Source: Sulfurimonas sp. HSL-1656
GTDB taxonomy: Bacteria > Campylobacterota > Campylobacteria > Campylobacterales > Sulfurimonadaceae
Direction: 5' to 3'
Assembly (NCBI RefSeq): GCF_039645585.1
Contig: NZ_CP147915.1
Coordinates: 930,001-994,000, forward strand
DNA: 64,000 nt
Part shown: positions 32,018 to 47,172 of the stretch, in pieces
How the letters are laid out: each line of letters starts with the position of its first letter
Numbering within the stretch: position 1 is the first letter of the stretch
Position numbers and translations under genes: made by a program
The notes under the pieces: generated by a model
Told to the model about the DNA's origin: nothing
Databases searched by the model: none
The model's input: the letters and a program-made list of their open reading frames with translations, nothing else

Positions 32018-32185
32018 AACGCTGTGCCTCCGGGTCTCGATCTCTTTCTGCCCCGGGCGCGGTGGGATTTTACGCTGTCATGCAGCATGAAAAAATCAGC
32101 TTTGACCCATGGAACTACAATCTCTCGTGCAAGTTTCAAACTATGAAAGGGTGCTTTGTTCTTTTGGTTGCTCTCCTCCGGGTTG

Positions 32186-32878
32186 TTAGGCAGTACCGGA
32201 TATGTCATCCTCACCCCGTGAGCGCCTTCGTATACCTATCAGTACCAGATTCAAACCCAGAGCAGCTGCCGTTATGATCAGCCATTCCATCGCAAGCGTG
32301 TTCCGATCAATGACGAGCATGGGATATTGCCGACTCGCGTCCAAATCACTGTCGAGAATGAAAGCCACTTTCGGGAGAATCGTATCGGGGCCTTCCATCT
32401 CAAGTGTTGAAGCCGGACCGTAAATGGGCCTTTTGACCGGCGGCAGTAGTGTCGTAAACATTATGAGGGCCATCGCTGCGATAATGACGCTCATCGTTCG
32501 CCTTAACGATTTGGGTATTTCAGAGCGTGTAGCGGCGAGATCGAGGATAGTCATACTCAAGAGAACGGCAAATAGCTGAAGCAATGCGGCGATAAAAAGC
32601 ACGAACATTGAAAAACCGTTCATCAGGAGGAGTATATAGAGTGAAATCCATATAAATACGTAAACGAACCACTTGAGTGCAGCGTGAAAATCAATCTTGT
32701 CTTCTTTGATGCTGACGCTGTAAAGTTTCCAAAGGGCAGTGGAAAAAAAACCGATAGGCCCGGTGACGAACAGGCCGAGGACGATCCCCAAACCTCCTGG
32801 AATGAAGATGCTGATGGCAAATAAAACAGCACCTACCATAAGGGCAGGGACGAAGACGCGAGAAGTAAAGTCCGTCAT
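32186..32878 (-). CDS. Polytopic membrane protein of unknown function
   Basis: This 230-residue protein has about six hydrophobic segments and a loop near residues 150-190 between the last two. No family recognised. GGGAGT lies upstream of the ATG. GC content is intermediate between the core genome and the cassette array that begins about 60 bases beyond its start. Confidence 0.55.
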   Translation of the reverse strand: MTDFTSRVFVPALMVGAVLFAISIFIPGGLGIVLGLFVTGPIGFFSTALWKLYSVSIKEDKIDFHAALKWFVYVFIWISLYILLLMNGFSMFVLFIAALLQLFAVLLSMTILDLAATRSEIPKSLRRTMSVIIAAMALIMFTTLLPPVKRPIYGPASTLEMEGPDTILPKVAFILDSDLDASRQYPMLVIDRNTLAMEWLIITAAALGLNLVLIGIRRRSRGEDDISGTA

Positions 32879-32941
32879 GAAAATGACTCCCTTATCCGTT
32901 TTTATTTTTATGGGGTGACATGTGGTTAGTCTCCGCGATAT

Positions 32942-33226
32942 CTACTTGCTGTTCTGCTTCAAAGCTTCCTCGATTTCGTGGATTCTTCGATCGGCATAAT
33001 CTTCAAATCTTTCATTCGTCGTGGCGTTTGAATCTTTTGGCTTTTGCTGTTTGGGAACGAGCATAGCAACAAGCAAAACCGGTATAAAAATAAATATGAA
33101 GCTTAAGAGGCAGATGATTAATTCCGGAAGTCTGTCTCTTCCGCCAAATTGAAAACTAATTCCCCAGAGGATATAAAAAATAAAAACTGCAAAAAGAACT
33201 TTGGATATGTCAATCGAACTTTTCAT
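32942..33226 (-). CDS. Small two-helix membrane protein, distal to the last attC
   Basis: 94 residues with hydrophobic segments at about 8-28 and 35-58 and a charged coiled tail. It follows attC 33238-33306 in the array orientation, so it may be the last cassette gene, but I find no attC behind it (32880-32941). It could be the array edge or a cassette whose attC has decayed. Confidence 0.5.
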   Translation of the reverse strand: MKSSIDISKVLFAVFIFYILWGISFQFGGRDRLPELIICLLSFIFIFIPVLLVAMLVPKQQKPKDSNATTNERFEDYADRRIHEIEEALKQNSK

Positions 33227-33237
33227 CTTTTCCCACT

Positions 33238-33306
33238 GGATAACGTTTAAAATGAGAAATATTTGGGCCGCAGGGTCAAATATTTCTCTCCAATGTTTTG
33301 TTATGG
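33238..33306 (-). repeat. attC site 1 (array end)
   Basis: The site runs from GGATAAC (33238-33244) to GTTATGG (33300-33306) with the conserved TAACGTTTAAAATGAG arm and a long imperfect palindrome (AATATTTG/CAAATATT). It terminates the cassette of the lipoprotein gene. It is more divergent than the sites further up and its terminal cores match each other only partly. Confidence 0.75.
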
Positions 33307-33336
33307 CTTATATTTCTGTAAAGCCTCAACTATTAT

Positions 33337-33720
33337 TTATTCTATTGTTAAGTCAAAAGTTTCTTTATTTTTTCTTTCTTCACAAGTACCATATTCTACG
33401 GAATTATTTAATGTGAATGTACAACTCAGATAGCCACCTTTTGAACCTCTTTGCTTTAATATTCCACCACTTGTTGATGAACCACTTATTAAAGCCGTGC
33501 TATTTCCAACCATTGCTGTTCCGTAACTTGAAGTTTTAATTCTTGACCAATGCCCTTTATAATTTTCATCTCTTATTGTAATATCAAAGGTGTCGCTAAA
33601 ATCATTAAATGTTCCATAATGAATTGAATTGTCTTTTTGTGAAACTAATTCTGCTTTGTATGTACATCCACTAAGTAAGACAATCCCGCATACAATTAGG
33701 ATTGAGTTTTTGGTTTGCAT
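33337..33720 (-). CDS. Cassette gene: small lipoprotein
   Basis: 127 residues with a lipoprotein signal peptide ending LLSGC (lipobox Cys at about 19), followed by a beta-rich, Ser/Thr/Gly-rich domain with a further cysteine pair. AT-rich composition differs from the core genome. Located between attC sites at 33238 and 33733. Function unknown. Confidence 0.65.
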   Translation of the reverse strand: MQTKNSILIVCGIVLLSGCTYKAELVSQKDNSIHYGTFNDFSDTFDITIRDENYKGHWSRIKTSSYGTAMVGNSTALISGSSTSGGILKQRGSKGGYLSCTFTLNNSVEYGTCEERKNKETFDLTIE

Positions 33721-33732
33721 TTTAACTCCTTT

Positions 33733-33804
33733 TTATAACGTTTAAACTCACCAATATGAGGCCCGCATGTGGGCCTCATATTGGTGTGCAGAGATTTGTT
33801 AGAT
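33733..33804 (-). repeat. attC site 2
   Basis: From TTATAAC (33733-33739) to GTTAGAT (33798-33804). The inner palindrome CCAATATGAGGCCC/GGGCCTCATATTGG is nearly perfect. The stop codon of the HNH gene lies inside the right core, as expected for a compact gene cassette. The GTTAGAT core equals the complement of the core at the other end of the HNH cassette (34241-34247). Confidence 0.85.
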
Positions 33805-34242
33805 GTGGACTGCATCATATATCGCTTTTGCTATCTCATAGTCAATTTCGTGTTTTCCATGCGGAGTAGCCTTAACAAAACGGCCTATTTCCTCAGGCGA
33901 GAATGAAAAATCCTTAGGCAAAGATAGTTTTCTTTTGGCTGCCCCATCTGCTGAATTGCATTGATCACAAATTACTGTTTGAGGGAATCTGCCATTATTC
34001 AAAGATAAATAACCTTGTGAATGATCATGATGCTTATGCAGTATAGCAACCCAGTCGTAAAATGCATTAGGTGAATTCGGAAATCGTTTAGCCCACCTCA
34101 TTATTTGATACTTGTTTCTTTTACACGAAGGACATATCCAGTAATCACCTACCATAGCCCAAAGTCTGTGACAATGCAGCCCATCATAATTTTCAAAATC
34201 TTCTTGTGTAGGTACTTTTAGTTTCATGTTATTCATCTTCAT
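33799..34242 (-). CDS. Cassette gene: HNH-type zinc-finger nuclease-like protein
   Basis: 147 residues with CPSC near 38-41 and CDQCN near 92-95, and a histidine cluster (ILHKHHDHSQGY) between them. This fits an HNH endonuclease with a structural zinc site, or a related zinc-ribbon protein. The ATG at 34242 overlaps the attC core; in-frame ATGs at 34236 and 34227 are alternatives and none has a ribosome site. Substrate unknown; it might be a defence or mobility nuclease. Confidence 0.6.
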   Translation of the reverse strand: MKMNNMKLKVPTQEDFENYDGLHCHRLWAMVGDYWICPSCKRNKYQIMRWAKRFPNSPNAFYDWVAILHKHHDHSQGYLSLNNGRFPQTVICDQCNSADGAAKRKLSLPKDFSFSPEEIGRFVKATPHGKHEIDYEIAKAIYDAVHI

Positions 34243-34312
34243 CTAACGTTTAAAATGAGCAATCAAAAAGCCGCCCGCGGGTTTTTGATTGGTCTCCTTT
34301 GATTTGTTAGAT
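34241..34312 (-). repeat. attC site 3
   Basis: From ATCTAAC (34241-34247) to GTTAGAT (34306-34312). The palindromic centre is CAATCAAAAAGCC against GGGTTTTTGATTG. The 72-bp site is nearly identical to those at 34625 and 35340. The upstream gene's stop codon lies within the right core. Confidence 0.9.
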
Positions 34313-34615
34313 GCTATTCGCATGCTTAATTTCCTCCTGCTCTTCTGCTGGTACATTTGACCACAAAACGTTTTTCGCAAGTTTCAGCTCAATGTCTAAA
34401 CTAGACTGAACAACATCGCAAATTTGTTTGTACCATTGAGAACAACTCCATTCTTTCAATGGCGTTGATTTGAATCCATGTCGTTCTTGATCCCAATAAA
34501 CACCGGCAGCATCTCGGTACACATATTGGTATTCCGGTTTGCCTTGGCTTTCAAGGCCAAGTAGCAACTCACCGGTATCAAGCAGTTCAATTCTCTTTAT
34601 TGTTTCGTGCCTCAT
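34307..34615 (-). CDS. Cassette gene: hypothetical protein
   Basis: 102-residue cytosolic protein starting MRHETIKRIELLDTGELLLG. No family recognised. AT-rich, bounded by nearly identical attC sites whose GTTAGAT/ATCTAAC cores are exact complements, so the gene is one intact cassette of about 380 bp. Confidence 0.6.
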   Translation of the reverse strand: MRHETIKRIELLDTGELLLGLESQGKPEYQYVYRDAAGVYWDQERHGFKSTPLKEWSCSQWYKQICDVVQSSLDIELKLAKNVLWSNVPAEEQEEIKHANSI

Positions 34616-34624
34616 TTGCTTACC

Positions 34625-34696
34625 ATCTAACGTTTAAAATGAGCAATCAAAAAGCCGCCCGCGGGTTTTTGATTGGTCTCCTTTGGTTTGTTAACC
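34625..34696 (-). repeat. attC site 4
   Basis: From ATCTAAC (34625-34631) to GTTAACC (34690-34696), with the same internal palindrome as site 3. The GTTAACC core is complementary to GGTTAAC at 35340-35346, the other end of the same cassette. The stop of the 34691-35323 gene is inside the core. Confidence 0.9.
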
Positions 34697-35323
34697 TTTT
34701 TTGCTGACATGAGGTCGTAACCATTTTTCAAATTTAGCAATAGCTTCATTGATTTCTGGAGTAAATTTGTCATACTCGGAATCTTCACCACCGTAATAAA
34801 GAACAGATCTTTCATTAGCTCTTTCTTCCCGTGTAGTAGCTTGATTAAACTCCGGATCTTTTTTTCGTTCAAGCATTTGTTGAATTGCAATTTGAAGCGT
34901 TACTCTACAAGATCGAAGTCCGGTTATGACGTCTTGAAACTTTGAGCCCCATTCAACCTGTGCATTCAAGTGATGTTCTTCAAGTTCCTTAAATGCAGCA
35001 TGCATAATTTCCCATCGTTTTTCGTAGACATGTGCTGTGCCTTCATAGTTGTACTCACGCTTTAAATGACCGTGATAATCTGTCATATCTTCTGGGTATT
35101 CATATTGATAAATCGCAGGATTTCTAACATGTTTAAAAGCTTCTCGTACTTTATATACTGACTTCAAAACATCTTTTGCAAGCTGATATTCTGCTTTTCC
35201 CTTGAGCTCTTTTTTCCATGCACTTAGTCCTAAGTATGCAAATATAGTGGCAGTGACAGCTGATAAACCTACAAGTGAATCTTTGGCAGCAGATATCCAT
35301 GGACCAAGTTCTGATATTTCCAA
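34691..35323 (-). CDS. Cassette gene: membrane-anchored helical protein
   Basis: 210 residues. An N-terminal amphipathic/hydrophobic segment (SLVGLSAVTATIFAYLGLSAW, about 17-37) probably anchors it in the membrane. The remainder is helical, charged and cytosolic or periplasmic. No family recognised. AT-rich and flanked by attC sites. Confidence 0.6.
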   Translation of the reverse strand: MEISELGPWISAAKDSLVGLSAVTATIFAYLGLSAWKKELKGKAEYQLAKDVLKSVYKVREAFKHVRNPAIYQYEYPEDMTDYHGHLKREYNYEGTAHVYEKRWEIMHAAFKELEEHHLNAQVEWGSKFQDVITGLRSCRVTLQIAIQQMLERKKDPEFNQATTREERANERSVLYYGGEDSEYDKFTPEINEAIAKFEKWLRPHVSKKG

Positions 35324-35339
35324 TTGTTTTTCCTTTGAA

Positions 35340-35411
35340 GGTTAACGTTTAAAATGAGCAATCAAAAAGCCGCGCGCGGGTTTTTGATTGGTCTCCTTTG
35401 ATTTGTTATAC
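35340..35411 (-). repeat. attC site 5
   Basis: From GGTTAAC (35340-35346) to GTTATAC (35405-35411). It differs from sites 3 and 4 at only a few bases (for example GCGCGCGG in the centre). The GTTATAC core is complementary to GTATAAC at 36227-36233, marking the far end of the DUF6602 cassette. Confidence 0.9.
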
Positions 35412-35414
35412 CTT

Positions 35415-36212
35415 CTATACAATGCGAACATTTCCAAATTGCACGTTTTGAATATAAGGAATTGCGTTTAGCCATGCTCCTTGAATATTGTTACAAGCCT
35501 CTTGTAGTGCTAAAAACATCATTAGTAAGTTGCCATTTGGGTTGTCAGCTATAATGTGAGTTCCTGGCAAAGGAGCTTGAGGGTTATTTAGTGTCAACGG
35601 TGAATTATCTAATTTTACAAAGCCCTTGTTCAGCAATACAACACCATCTAGAGCTGTACCTGGAGTAGATGTACGATTTGGTTGGTTCCATGTTGGAAGC
35701 GGAATATTATTATTGGCATGACTATTCATAATCCAATTATGTACAGTACTCATTTGAGCTGGACCATCATAGGCAACTACATAATTGATAACTTTTGGTG
35801 GAACCCAACCACTGCTAAAACTTCGTGTAACATTAGGAGATAAACTCTTCGCATTGTAGGCAGCTCTGACAGATTGATCTATAGCTGACTGATCCAACAA
35901 GGATTTCACCTCAATAGTGGCAACAACCGACTCGACTAGAAAACCGTTGACACCACCACCAAAGTCGAGCTTTGGATAATTGTTTTTGTAGATGACGATG
36001 TCATATTGATTTCTCTGAGCTCTAGGTTGTGAATTTGAATCGATAATTTCGCCTGTTCCTATTGCAACATTTGCACTTAGATGCCCTTCCAAGAATTCTT
36101 TAATGAATGCTTCTCTTGGCGTACCACGATGTAAAGTGTGGCCAGCATTAGCAGGAATTTGTGAGATGCTTACGAGATGATTCTCAATTGCATCTATGTG
36201 TGACTTAAGCAT
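35415..36212 (-). CDS. Cassette gene: DUF6602 protein, nuclease-like
   Basis: 265 residues, starting with HRGTPREAFIKEFLEGHL near residue 27. GTGEIID, NQYDIVIY and VVATIEVKSLL follow. The D and E-x-K spacing resembles the PD-(D/E)xK nuclease fold; I recall the name DUF6602 for this pattern. Such proteins occur in integrons and defence islands. It is the first cassette in the array, next to the putative integration point. Confidence 0.65.
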   Translation of the reverse strand: MLKSHIDAIENHLVSISQIPANAGHTLHRGTPREAFIKEFLEGHLSANVAIGTGEIIDSNSQPRAQRNQYDIVIYKNNYPKLDFGGGVNGFLVESVVATIEVKSLLDQSAIDQSVRAAYNAKSLSPNVTRSFSSGWVPPKVINYVVAYDGPAQMSTVHNWIMNSHANNNIPLPTWNQPNRTSTPGTALDGVVLLNKGFVKLDNSPLTLNNPQAPLPGTHIIADNPNGNLLMMFLALQEACNNIQGAWLNAIPYIQNVQFGNVRIV

Positions 36213-36226
36213 CTAGTTTCCTTAGT

Positions 36227-36233
36227 GTATAAC
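36227..36233 (-). other. Outer boundary of the first gene cassette
   Basis: GTATAAC here reads GTTATAC on the minus strand, complementary to the R'' core of attC site 5. Complementary ends define a cassette, so integration occurred at this G/TTATAC. The sequence beyond (36234-36416) is where attI and an integrase gene would be expected; it is AT-rich, has no ORF and no attC-like palindrome. Confidence 0.55.
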
Positions 36234-36416
36234 TATTTATTCATTCCCAAACTGTGTCATATTGCTGGAACATCCATAGATATTTGGAACTCATGAGTGT
36301 CCTAATATTGGATATTTAATCGCAATATTAAACAAATTGAAATATATCTGTTAATACTACGCTTTTTTTCTTAAAATTATTTCTGTTTGAACGTTCTCGG
36401 TATTTTGATATTCGGA

Positions 36417-36462
36417 CAAAGTGTCTGTCTATCATTGATATATGTGCTTATTGGACACTTTG
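36417..36462. repeat. 9-bp inverted repeat after the acyl-CoA dehydrogenase-like gene
   Basis: CAAAGTGTC at 36417-36425 pairs with GACACTTTG at 36454-36462 over a 28-base spacer, five bases past the stop of the minus-strand gene. It may be a terminator or the trace of a mobile-element end at the array border. Confidence 0.4.
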
Positions 36463-36466
36463 ACTT

Positions 36467-37471
36467 TTAATGTGTGGATTCTAGTGCTGAGAAAAAAGCT
36501 TGTTTATGCAGACGTTTGAGCGCGTTGTTGAGCCCGTTGGCGTTGAACATGACGAGTTCGCGGTAGTAGCGCTGGAGCCGTTCAGTTGAGAGGACGGAGC
36601 GGCCGCCGTAGAGGATCATTCCGGTGGTGACTATTTGCTGGACGAGTTCGAAGAGCTCGATGCGGAGCCTGTCGAGTTCCTCACCGTTTTTCGTGGCGAG
36701 AAAGGCGGTTTTCACGGCTTCCAGTCTCGCTCCGGCGGCGCAGCGAACCTCCTCGTCTTCCAGGACATCCACGGCGCCGAGGCCGATGCCGTAGAGGGCG
36801 TAGTGGATGGTCTTGGAGACGGATTTGTTTTTCGTGTAAGTGCCGAGGGGGTGCGAGGCGACGATGTGTTCCTGCGGCACTTCATAATTGTCGAGGACGA
36901 CATCGACCGTGTGCATGGCGTTGCCGACAAACGTTTCGGTCGGGGTGCCCAGGGTGAAGCCCTCGCGGGGTTCAAAAGGAACCACCGCCTGAAACTCCTG
37001 CCCTTCGCAATGGAAGCCGACGACGAGGGTGTCAAAAATGCCGTAGCCGCTTGCCCACGTCAGGCGGCCGTTCAGGCGGTAGGCGCCGTTTTGTTGCGTG
37101 GCCGATACCACCGTGACGGGGGCGCGCAGGTGGTTGATGGCGATCCCGCAGCGTTTGGCCAGGTAGGTATCTAGCTGGGTGAAACGGTTGACGTGCATGA
37201 TCTTGTTGGCCGCGAGGATCTGGATGGCCAGGAAGGCGAGGCTGCCCGAGCGGGGGGCGAGGGTCGTGAAAAGCCGGAACTTCATCGTCTCATGCAGGTC
37301 GGAAGCGTAGCGGTGAAAGGCAAAAACGCCCGCATCGTAGACAAGGTCGAAGGCCTCTTTGAGCATGGAAGTTTCCGTGTCGAGGCGGTGGAGGGGGAGG
37401 GCGTCCAGGCGGGCGGCTGCCGCTTCGAGCTGTGCGCTATAGTGCTCCAGGTCCGCTGTTGCTTCGGTCAT
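36467..37471 (-). CDS. Acyl-CoA dehydrogenase-like flavoprotein
   Basis: 334 residues from ATG 37471, which follows GGAGAAG; a longer upstream reading only re-reads the neighbouring gene. The central region RLNGRLTWASGYGIFDTLVVGF and the helical C-terminal half (LYGIGLGAVDVLEDE) resemble the acyl-CoA dehydrogenase/DszC-like flavin fold. The canonical catalytic Glu is not evident, so a monooxygenase or inactive relative is possible. Coupled to a GNAT gene by ATGA. Confidence 0.6.
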   Translation of the reverse strand: MTEATADLEHYSAQLEAAAARLDALPLHRLDTETSMLKEAFDLVYDAGVFAFHRYASDLHETMKFRLFTTLAPRSGSLAFLAIQILAANKIMHVNRFTQLDTYLAKRCGIAINHLRAPVTVVSATQQNGAYRLNGRLTWASGYGIFDTLVVGFHCEGQEFQAVVPFEPREGFTLGTPTETFVGNAMHTVDVVLDNYEVPQEHIVASHPLGTYTKNKSVSKTIHYALYGIGLGAVDVLEDEEVRCAAGARLEAVKTAFLATKNGEELDRLRIELFELVQQIVTTGMILYGGRSVLSTERLQRYYRELVMFNANGLNNALKRLHKQAFFSALESTH

Positions 37472-46350: not shown

Positions 46351-47172
46351 GTGTCCGGTCCGCTCGAAGCCTTTATCGAATACATCACCGTTACAAAGGC
46401 CCTCAGCAAGCGGACGGTCGAGGCTTACCGCTCCGACCTCGAACAGCTCGAGAAGGCGGCGGAACGTCCGCTGCTCTCCCTGGAGACCGCCGATGTTCTG
46501 AAACTGCTCGGCGGGATAGCCAACAAACGTACCCTCAACCGCAAACTCTCCTCGCTCAACGCCTTTTTCGCTTTTTGTCATTCGCGCCGCTTTACGGCGG
46601 AGGCGGAGAAGTTCGCACTGGCGAAGATCCCCAAGCAGCTGCCGAAGTTTCTCAGTTACGATGCGATCGAACAGGGGGTTGCGGCCATCGGTACCGAGAA
46701 GTGGACGGACCTGCGCGACCGGGCGCTGATCCTGTTCCTCTACGCGACGGGGGTGCGCATCAGCGAGGCACTGGCCGTCGAGCCCAGCGATTTCGAAGGG
46801 GAGTGGCTGCGGGTACGCCACGGCAAGGGGGAAAAAGAGCGGCTGGTCCCCGTTGCCGAGGCGGCACGCCGCCTGATCGACCGCTACCTCGAAGCGGTAC
46901 CCTTTGAGCGCAACCAACTCTGGCTGAACCACAGGGGCAAGCCGCTCAGCCGCGTTTCCGCCTACAAGATTACCCAGAAATACCTCGGCGTCTCGCCCCA
47001 CGTCCTGCGCCACTCCTATGCGACGGCATTGATCATCGGCGGGGCGGACCTGCGGGTCGTCCAGGAGCTGCTGGGGCACGCTTCGCTGCTGACGACGCAG
47101 GTCTATACTCATGTCCAGAAACAGAACCTCAAAGAGACCGTCCTGCGTTACCACCCCTACAGCAAATCCTGA
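46351..47172 (+). CDS. Xer-type tyrosine recombinase
   Basis: 273 residues from GTG 46351. The N-terminal SAM-like DNA-binding domain (FIEYITVTKALSKRTVEAYR) precedes the catalytic domain with Arg in TGVRISEAL, Lys in HGKGEKER, HVLRHSYA (His-x-x-Arg), the second His in LLGHASLLTTQ and Tyr in VYTHVQ. Length fits XerC/XerD-like chromosome-dimer resolvases. It lacks the extra helix and length of integron integrases, so it is not the missing IntI of the cassette array. Confidence 0.85.
   Translation: MSGPLEAFIEYITVTKALSKRTVEAYRSDLEQLEKAAERPLLSLETADVLKLLGGIANKRTLNRKLSSLNAFFAFCHSRRFTAEAEKFALAKIPKQLPKFLSYDAIEQGVAAIGTEKWTDLRDRALILFLYATGVRISEALAVEPSDFEGEWLRVRHGKGEKERLVPVAEAARRLIDRYLEAVPFERNQLWLNHRGKPLSRVSAYKITQKYLGVSPHVLRHSYATALIIGGADLRVVQELLGHASLLTTQVYTHVQKQNLKETVLRYHPYSKS

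What the first reader, a model, noticed from the sequence alone, without database searches (positions are those of the whole stretch)
33238..36233. Integron gene-cassette array with five attC sites in a Campylobacterota genome
Five 69-72 bp imperfect palindromes with RYYYAAC/GTTRRRY-like ends separate AT-rich single-gene cassettes, all on the minus strand. Three are nearly identical, as in chromosomal integrons. Several stop codons lie inside the attC core. This matches known attC architecture and is clearly distinct from the GC-rich host.
Basis: partly seen in the sequence, partly recalled or inferred. Interest (0 to 1): 0.8.

Follow-up and report, generated by a model that had tools for sequence, protein, structure and literature searches.

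The report
Integron cassette array missing its integrase
Five mobile gene cassettes sit in a bacterial chromosome at a true integron landing site, but the integrase gene that captured them has been cleanly deleted, and the same loss has happened repeatedly in related bacteria.

Summary
Five attC sites on the minus strand end five single-gene cassettes. A covariance model built only from other genera finds all five (68.9-86.7 bits), and the first four cassettes show the exact R'/R'' complementarity of an excisable unit. The array has no integrase, and neither does the complete 2.56 Mb genome, which holds 15 such attC at six places. A congener (G007) has the intact integron at the same chromosomal position. 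Comparison shows that here attI and the intI upstream region survive (36230-36462), while the intI frame (~980 bp) is gone except for its last two codons and stop. The element is a chromosomal integron that decayed into an attI-headed CALIN. A second integron locus in this genome, and further loci in three congeners, lost intI with other breakpoints (at least three independent events). One cassette is 91.7% identical to a cassette in a Sulfurovum MAG, so cassettes move between families. By-product: a phylum-wide attI consensus, TGAATAAATA|GTTA, which also heads integrase-less arrays in other genera and on an Aliarcobacter plasmid. Known kind of element; the anatomy and its recurrence are the new part.

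The parts
36230..36243 (-). attI core TGAATAAATA|GTTA; crossover between attI and first cassette at GTT (36231-36233)
   Evidence: First-cassette boundary defined by R'/R'' complementarity; the exact 14-mer occurs only twice in the genome, here and at the second integron locus
36234..36462 (-). retained attI upstream part and former intI upstream (PintI) region
   Evidence: 89.3% identical to L075:11108-11340 of G007, which lies between the array and an intact intI
36459..36472 (+). deletion scar: intI removed (about 980 bp), GACTTTTAA (last two codons and stop) retained
   Evidence: Window 36459 onward matches L075:12320 onward, i.e. the 3' end of intI and its downstream flank
35343..35408 (-). 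attC 1
   Evidence: R1 hold-out covariance model 85.9 bits
34628..34693 (-). attC 2
   Evidence: R1 85.4 bits
34244..34309 (-). attC 3
   Evidence: R1 86.7 bits
33736..33801 (-). attC 4 (different hairpin sequence)
   Evidence: R1 72.8 bits
33241..33303 (-). attC 5 (different hairpin sequence, distal end of array)
   Evidence: R1 68.9 bits
35345..36233 (-). cassette 1: 265-aa protein (35415-36212), DUF6602, PD-(D/E)xK/NucC-like nuclease domain; R'/R'' GTTATAC/GTATAAC
   Evidence: Pfam PF20247 78.9 bits, PADLOC PD_DExK 1.5e-22 and NucC 2.4e-9, boundaries
34630..35345 (-). cassette 2: 210-aa protein of unknown function (34691-35323); R'/R'' GTTAACC/GGTTAAC; shared with Sulfurovum sp. UBA7648
   Evidence: 91.7% nucleotide identity over 719 bp, one cassette unit, with L112 (= L093)
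34246..34630 (-). cassette 3: 102-aa protein (34307-34615), relative of integron cassette protein Hfx_Cass5; R'/R'' GTTAGAT/ATCTAAC
   Evidence: PF18287 29.6 bits, cut-off 25; PDB 3if4 E 2.9e-12
33738..34246 (-). cassette 4: 147-aa protein with two CxxC pairs and an HxHHDH-like motif (33799-34242), possible HNH-type nuclease (reading by eye)
   Evidence: Up to 61% identity to proteins encoded on plasmids of Polaromonas, Sphingomonas and Rhizobium; R'/R'' GTTAGAT/ATCTAAC
33243..33738 (-). cassette 5: 127-aa putative lipoprotein (33337-33720)
   Evidence: ORF with LLSGC lipobox-like start; no family match; R'/R'' only partly complementary

Best explanation
This is the cassette array and attI site of a sedentary chromosomal integron that has lost its integrase gene: a CALIN with attI still in place, formed by intI deletion in situ. 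Shown by comparison: an IntI-type integron stood at this position, cassettes were inserted at the attI GTT in the order now read from 36233 down to 33241, and the intI frame was then removed by a deletion from just upstream of its start to its last three codons. Inferred from established integron biology: IntI recombined the folded bottom strand of attC (the plus strand of the window) with attI, and each cassette was captured as a circle through that reaction. Also inferred: the array is now frozen in this genome unless an IntI is supplied in trans, and proximal cassettes may still be transcribed from a promoter at or near attI.
For: Hold-out covariance model 5/5 on the minus strand, opposite strand at most 26.7 bits. 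In the training set of other genera, hairpin columns show 72 double-sided compensatory cells against 24 in shuffles, and 89% of cells paired against at most 43% when slid. R'/R'' 7-mers are perfectly complementary in cassettes 1-4. A cassette-encoded protein matches the solved integron cassette protein Hfx_Cass5. Synteny with G007: flanks 92% (left) and 77% (right), attI region 89%, intact 320-aa intI over the TIGR02249 cut-off (420.9 bits) present there and missing here, with the junction at 36459-36462. No intI over the cut-off anywhere in the complete genome, best 59 bits against 265. Cassettes differ completely from those of G005 at the same site although the flanks are 94-96% identical. 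Horizontal cassette shared with Sulfurovum.
Against: No recombination, expression or excision was tested. The training sites of the model were chosen by a pattern taken from these ends, so the invariance of the outer R boxes is by construction (the inside of the site was left free). Cassette 5 has imperfect R'/R'' complementarity. The 1.1 kb between the conserved left flank (32149) and attC 5 is not explained by the cassette model. The pre-deletion sequence of this very lineage is not available; G007 stands in for it.
Confidence: 0.93

Rival explanations
1. The array arose by off-target insertion of cassettes at a secondary (attG) site by an integrase encoded elsewhere, and never had its own intI.
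For: The genome has another attC cluster without a recognisable attI (G000 1468930-1470665), and off-target insertion is one of three published routes to a CALIN (PMC8618304).
Against: The intI upstream region and the last codons of intI are still there, in the same order as in the intact G007 locus.
Confidence: 0.03
2. The palindromes are ordinary intrinsic terminators or another dispersed palindromic repeat (REP, MITE).
For: They are hairpins at the 3' ends of genes, and the cores contain short T runs.
Against: Only 15 in 2.56 Mb and at six places; conserved R'' and R' ends outside the stem; each of cassettes 1-4 begins with the complement of its own R'' box; covariation across genera; sites next to intI in relatives.
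Confidence: 0.01
3. The array is still active: an IntI delivered on a mobile element, or by another cell, works on it in trans, so intI loss is not the end of its activity. (This is compatible with the best explanation and differs only on what happens now.)
For: attI and attC cores are intact; cassette content has turned over completely relative to G005; related genomes hold several attI-headed arrays with one intI (G087, G091). Trans mobilisation of CALINs is accepted in the literature (PMC12444791).
Against: No intact intI in this genome; the turnover could all predate the loss.
Confidence: 0.25

Closest known systems
[quoted passage not shown] Cury et al., IntegronFinder; PMC9024848, PMC8618304)
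   Same: At least two attC, cassettes, no intI
   Different: attI and a deletion scar of intI are still recognisable, so the route of formation is visible rather than guessed
Xanthomonas chromosomal integrons at ilvD with inactivated intI (PMC12444791)
   Same: Fixed chromosomal place, recurrent lineage-specific intI loss, arrays retained
   Different: Here two platforms per genome, deletion boundaries mapped against an intact congener, different phylum
Integrons of Campylobacterota (phylum listed in PMC8618304; In0 and CALIN reported for Sulfurimonas autotrophica in PMC10295459)
   Same: Same phylum; integrase and attC elements already known to occur there
   Different: No attI consensus, attC type or synteny of this kind was found in the papers read here
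Sedentary chromosomal integron of Vibrio cholerae (from general knowledge)
   Same: Chromosomal array, near-identical attC, mostly unknown cassette genes
   Different: Small arrays (five cassettes here), no intI, several arrays dispersed in one genome

Membership tests
Integron attC site | R''/R' ends RYYYAAC and GTTRRRY | tested here: met
   ATCTAAC...GTTAGAT and variants; cassettes 1-4 perfectly complementary between unit ends
Integron attC site | Conserved hairpin structure with variable sequence | tested here: met
   Covariation on 25 sites of other genera; hold-out model finds 5/5; single-strand folds
Integron attC site | Strand asymmetry (extrahelical bases on the L'' arm) | tested here: met
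   Model scores 69-87 bits on the minus strand and at most 26.7 on plus; unpaired AC in the L'' arm GAG-AC-CAATC of the three alike sites
Integron attC site | Recombined by IntI | not testable with these tools
   Needs a recombination assay
Gene cassette | Single ORF ending at attC, same orientation | tested here: met
   Five ORFs, all minus; three stop inside the R'' box
Gene cassette | Moves as a unit between genomes | tested here: met
   Cassette 2 shared with a Sulfurovum MAG, match ends at the cassette boundaries; not shown for the other four
Complete integron | intI gene adjacent to the array | tested here: not met
   No intI at the locus or in the genome; deletion scar at 36459-36472
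Complete integron | attI site | tested here: met
   Conserved core at the first-cassette junction, shared with intI-bearing loci of other genera; function not tested
CALIN | Two or more attC without neighbouring intI | tested here: met
   Five attC, no intI
Sedentary chromosomal integron (origin) | Chromosomal, same place in related species | tested here: met
   Same flanks in G004, G005, G007

The most novel reading that the evidence does not exclude
Campylobacterota share one cassette economy: a nearly invariant attI and attC pair lets cassettes pass between families, and many arrays are attI-headed but integrase-less, so that one IntI (or a visiting one) may serve several arrays in trans. 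Repeated integrase loss would then be a stable way of life rather than decay.
Probability: 0.25. Interest if true: 0.65.

Novelty: new member of a known kind. Interest (0 to 1): 0.48.

Why it matters
CALINs are about as common as complete integrons in public genomes (PMC9024848), and how they form is usually inferred. Here the intact platform, the deletion scar and the surviving attI can be lined up between congeners, and the same loss recurs with other breakpoints. The phylum-wide attI consensus gives a sequence handle for finding integrons and their remains outside class 1, where attI is poorly described (PMC9024848), and the shared attC type marks cassettes that circulate among sulfur-oxidising Campylobacterota and Arcobacter plasmids.

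Tried and rejected
Rfam has no match at the array. The viral contig collection has no exact match to the attC pattern, so phage carriage of this attC type was not supported. RNAalifold on the MAFFT alignment found only five pairs because gaps fall in the loop; the structure was therefore named by hand and tested against shuffles. Most TIGR02249 hits in the own genome outside the integron loci are ordinary Xer-type recombinases (59 bits or less against a 265-bit cut-off); one weak hit (843447-843536) is the intI 3' remnant of the second integron locus. A simple sigma-70 scan at attI gave only weak matches (4 against 1.8 in shuffles), so no Pc is claimed for this locus. ORF 32186-32878 has no relative in 59 related genomes. 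A Polaromonas plasmid relative of cassette 4 showed no attC with this model. No structure predictions were run, because the cassette proteins are not what decides the question.

Full report
WHAT IS THERE. The five repeats are real, and they are attC sites. In canonical orientation (minus strand) each reads TAACAAA-(L'')-hairpin-(L')-ACGTTA. They lie at 35343-35408, 34628-34693, 34244-34309, 33736-33801 and 33241-33303. Three share one hairpin sequence (93-99% identical) and two have different hairpins that still pair. All fold well as single-stranded DNA (z -3.0 to -7.7). The genes (265, 210, 102, 147 and 127 aa) lie on the same strand as the attC orientation, and three stop in the R'' TAA. 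The array has 37.7% GC in a window that is otherwise 57.2% GC.

INDEPENDENT TEST OF attC IDENTITY. I took 25 sites from other genera, found by the pattern TAACAAA-N-ACGTTA, which leaves the interior free. On a named hairpin structure, 89% of cells pair against 72% in shuffles and at most 43% when the partner is slid. There are 72 compensatory double changes against 24 in shuffles. The outer four pairs are invariant by construction and count for nothing. A covariance model from these 25, without any site of this genome or genus, finds all five window sites at 68.9-86.7 bits (E 2e-12 to 3e-16, rough) on the minus strand, while the opposite strand scores at most 26.7. A second test does not use the hairpin at all. 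In a true cassette, the first seven bases (GTTRRRY) are complementary to the cassette's own R''. This holds perfectly for cassettes 1-4 (GTTATAC/GTATAAC, GTTAACC/GGTTAAC, GTTAGAT/ATCTAAC twice) and only partly for cassette 5. Terminators would not show this.

NUMBER IN THE GENOME. The complete genome (2,556,179 bp, one contig) has 15 attC at six places: 525393, 841104-842208, 963241-965408 (this array), 1209313, 1468930-1470665 and 1715759-1718195. No integron integrase passes the TIGR02249 cut-off of 265 bits anywhere; the best is 59 bits, a Xer-type recombinase.

WHERE THE INTEGRASE WENT. Congener G007 has a complete integron at the same position. It has a left flank 92% identical, an attI region 89% identical, an intI of 320 aa scoring 420.9 bits against TIGR02249 with the usual tyrosine recombinase motifs by eye, and attC of the same type. 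Window 36230-36462 matches G007 L075:11108-11340, which lies between the first cassette and intI. Window 36459 onward matches L075:12320 onward, which is the last codons of intI and its downstream flank. So about 980 bp, the whole intI frame except GAC TTT TAA, is missing here. This is a visible intI deletion with attI left in place.

RECURRENCE. A second integron locus about 125 kb away (G000 842 kb) keeps attI, the first ~15 codons and the last ~31 codons of intI. At the same locus, G005 keeps attI and the last ~27 codons, and G007 and G004 only the 3' end. At the first locus, G004 keeps attI and the first codons of intI but not its end, and G005 keeps neither a recognisable intI nor the conserved attI. 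Of eight loci in four complete genomes, one has an intact intI. Because some deletions could be nested, the minimum is three independent losses: the G000 and G004 breakpoints at locus 1 exclude each other, plus one at locus 2. The same state, attI plus the intI upstream region but no intI, is seen in other genera, for example G091 L122 beside the intI-bearing L043 of the same genome, and G087 L119 and L120 beside L058.

attI. The first-cassette junction here is ...TTTGGGAATGAATAAATA|GTTATAC. The core AATAAATA|GTTA lies about 160-350 bp upstream of intI in most intI-bearing Campylobacterales loci examined that have enough upstream sequence, often preceded by TATATAATG. The exact 14-mer TGAATAAATAGTTA occurs 54 times in this genome and 120 relatives, against 4 for the reversed control. 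Thirty of the 54 lie directly upstream of an attC array (within 3.6 kb) or of intI (within 350 bp) in the right orientation, a lower limit because many contigs are short. In this genus all five occurrences sit at integron or CALIN loci, two of them in this genome. The core also heads an array on Aliarcobacter plasmid pCNAC48 (one mismatch) and one just after an rRNA operon in a Sulfurovum MAG. The TATAAT suggests that a cassette promoter may overlap attI, but it is not clear in the window's own site. This is inference.

CASSETTES. Cassette 1 encodes a DUF6602 protein with PD-(D/E)xK/NucC similarity, so a role in phage defence is plausible but untested. Cassette 2 is of unknown function; its nucleotide sequence is 91.7% identical over one cassette unit to a cassette in L112, which has the same sites and flank as L093, Sulfurovum sp. 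UBA7648. This shows exchange between families. Cassette 3 is related to the solved integron cassette protein Hfx_Cass5 (3if4, E 2.9e-12). Cassette 4 has relatives on proteobacterial plasmids (up to 61% identity) and, by eye, zinc-binding pairs and an HNH-like motif. Cassette 5 looks like a lipoprotein. None of the cassettes is shared with G005 at this place, although the flanks are 94-96% identical.

DISTRIBUTION. The same attC type is found by exact pattern in MAGs named Sulfurimonas, Sulfuricurvum, Sulfurospirillum, Sulfurovum and Arcobacter, in Acidithiobacillus marinus, and by similarity on Aliarcobacter and Arcobacter plasmids, but not in the viral contigs.

LITERATURE. Integrons and CALINs are known in Campylobacterota (PMC8618304, PMC10295459). 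Recurrent intI loss with retained arrays is known in Xanthomonas (PMC12444791). attI outside class 1 is described as poorly known (PMC9024848). No description of this attI consensus was found in the papers searched, which is an open-access subset only.

MECHANISM, WITH STATUS. Shown: attC identity, cassette units, attI position, former presence and deletion of intI at this position by synteny, and horizontal sharing of one cassette. Inferred from known integron biology: capture of circular cassettes by IntI on folded bottom strands, freezing after intI loss, and possible rescue in trans. Not tested: activity and expression.

Noticed in passing
32150-33237: About 1.1 kb with two minus-strand ORFs (230 and 94 aa) separates the conserved left flank from attC 5; congeners have attC almost directly at the flank. 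No attC here, and the 230-aa ORF has no relative in 59 related genomes. Possibly old cassettes that lost attC, or an unrelated insertion.
   Followed up: partly
L112 (= L093):500-1300: In Sulfurovum sp. UBA7648 the shared cassette is the first of an attI-headed array right after 23S-5S rRNA, with no intI seen.
   Followed up: partly
L116 (Aliarcobacter plasmid pCNAC48):3476-6066: attI-like site and two attC of the same type on a 162 kb plasmid, with no integrase within the 12 kb read.
   Followed up: partly
L095 (Acidithiobacillus marinus):524-589: The same attC type in Acidithiobacillus, outside Campylobacterota: possible cross-phylum cassette transfer.
   Followed up: no
G000 842 kb (L068:9164-9397) against window 36228-36462: The attI regions of the two loci in one genome are 93.6% identical, more alike than either is to the G007 attI (88-89%); gene conversion or recent duplication.
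   Followed up: no
398-473: c-di-GMP-I riboswitch (RF03167) on the minus strand.
   Followed up: no
46391-47128: Xer-type tyrosine recombinase (weak TIGR02249 match, 59 bits), at a similar distance from the array in G005.
   Followed up: no
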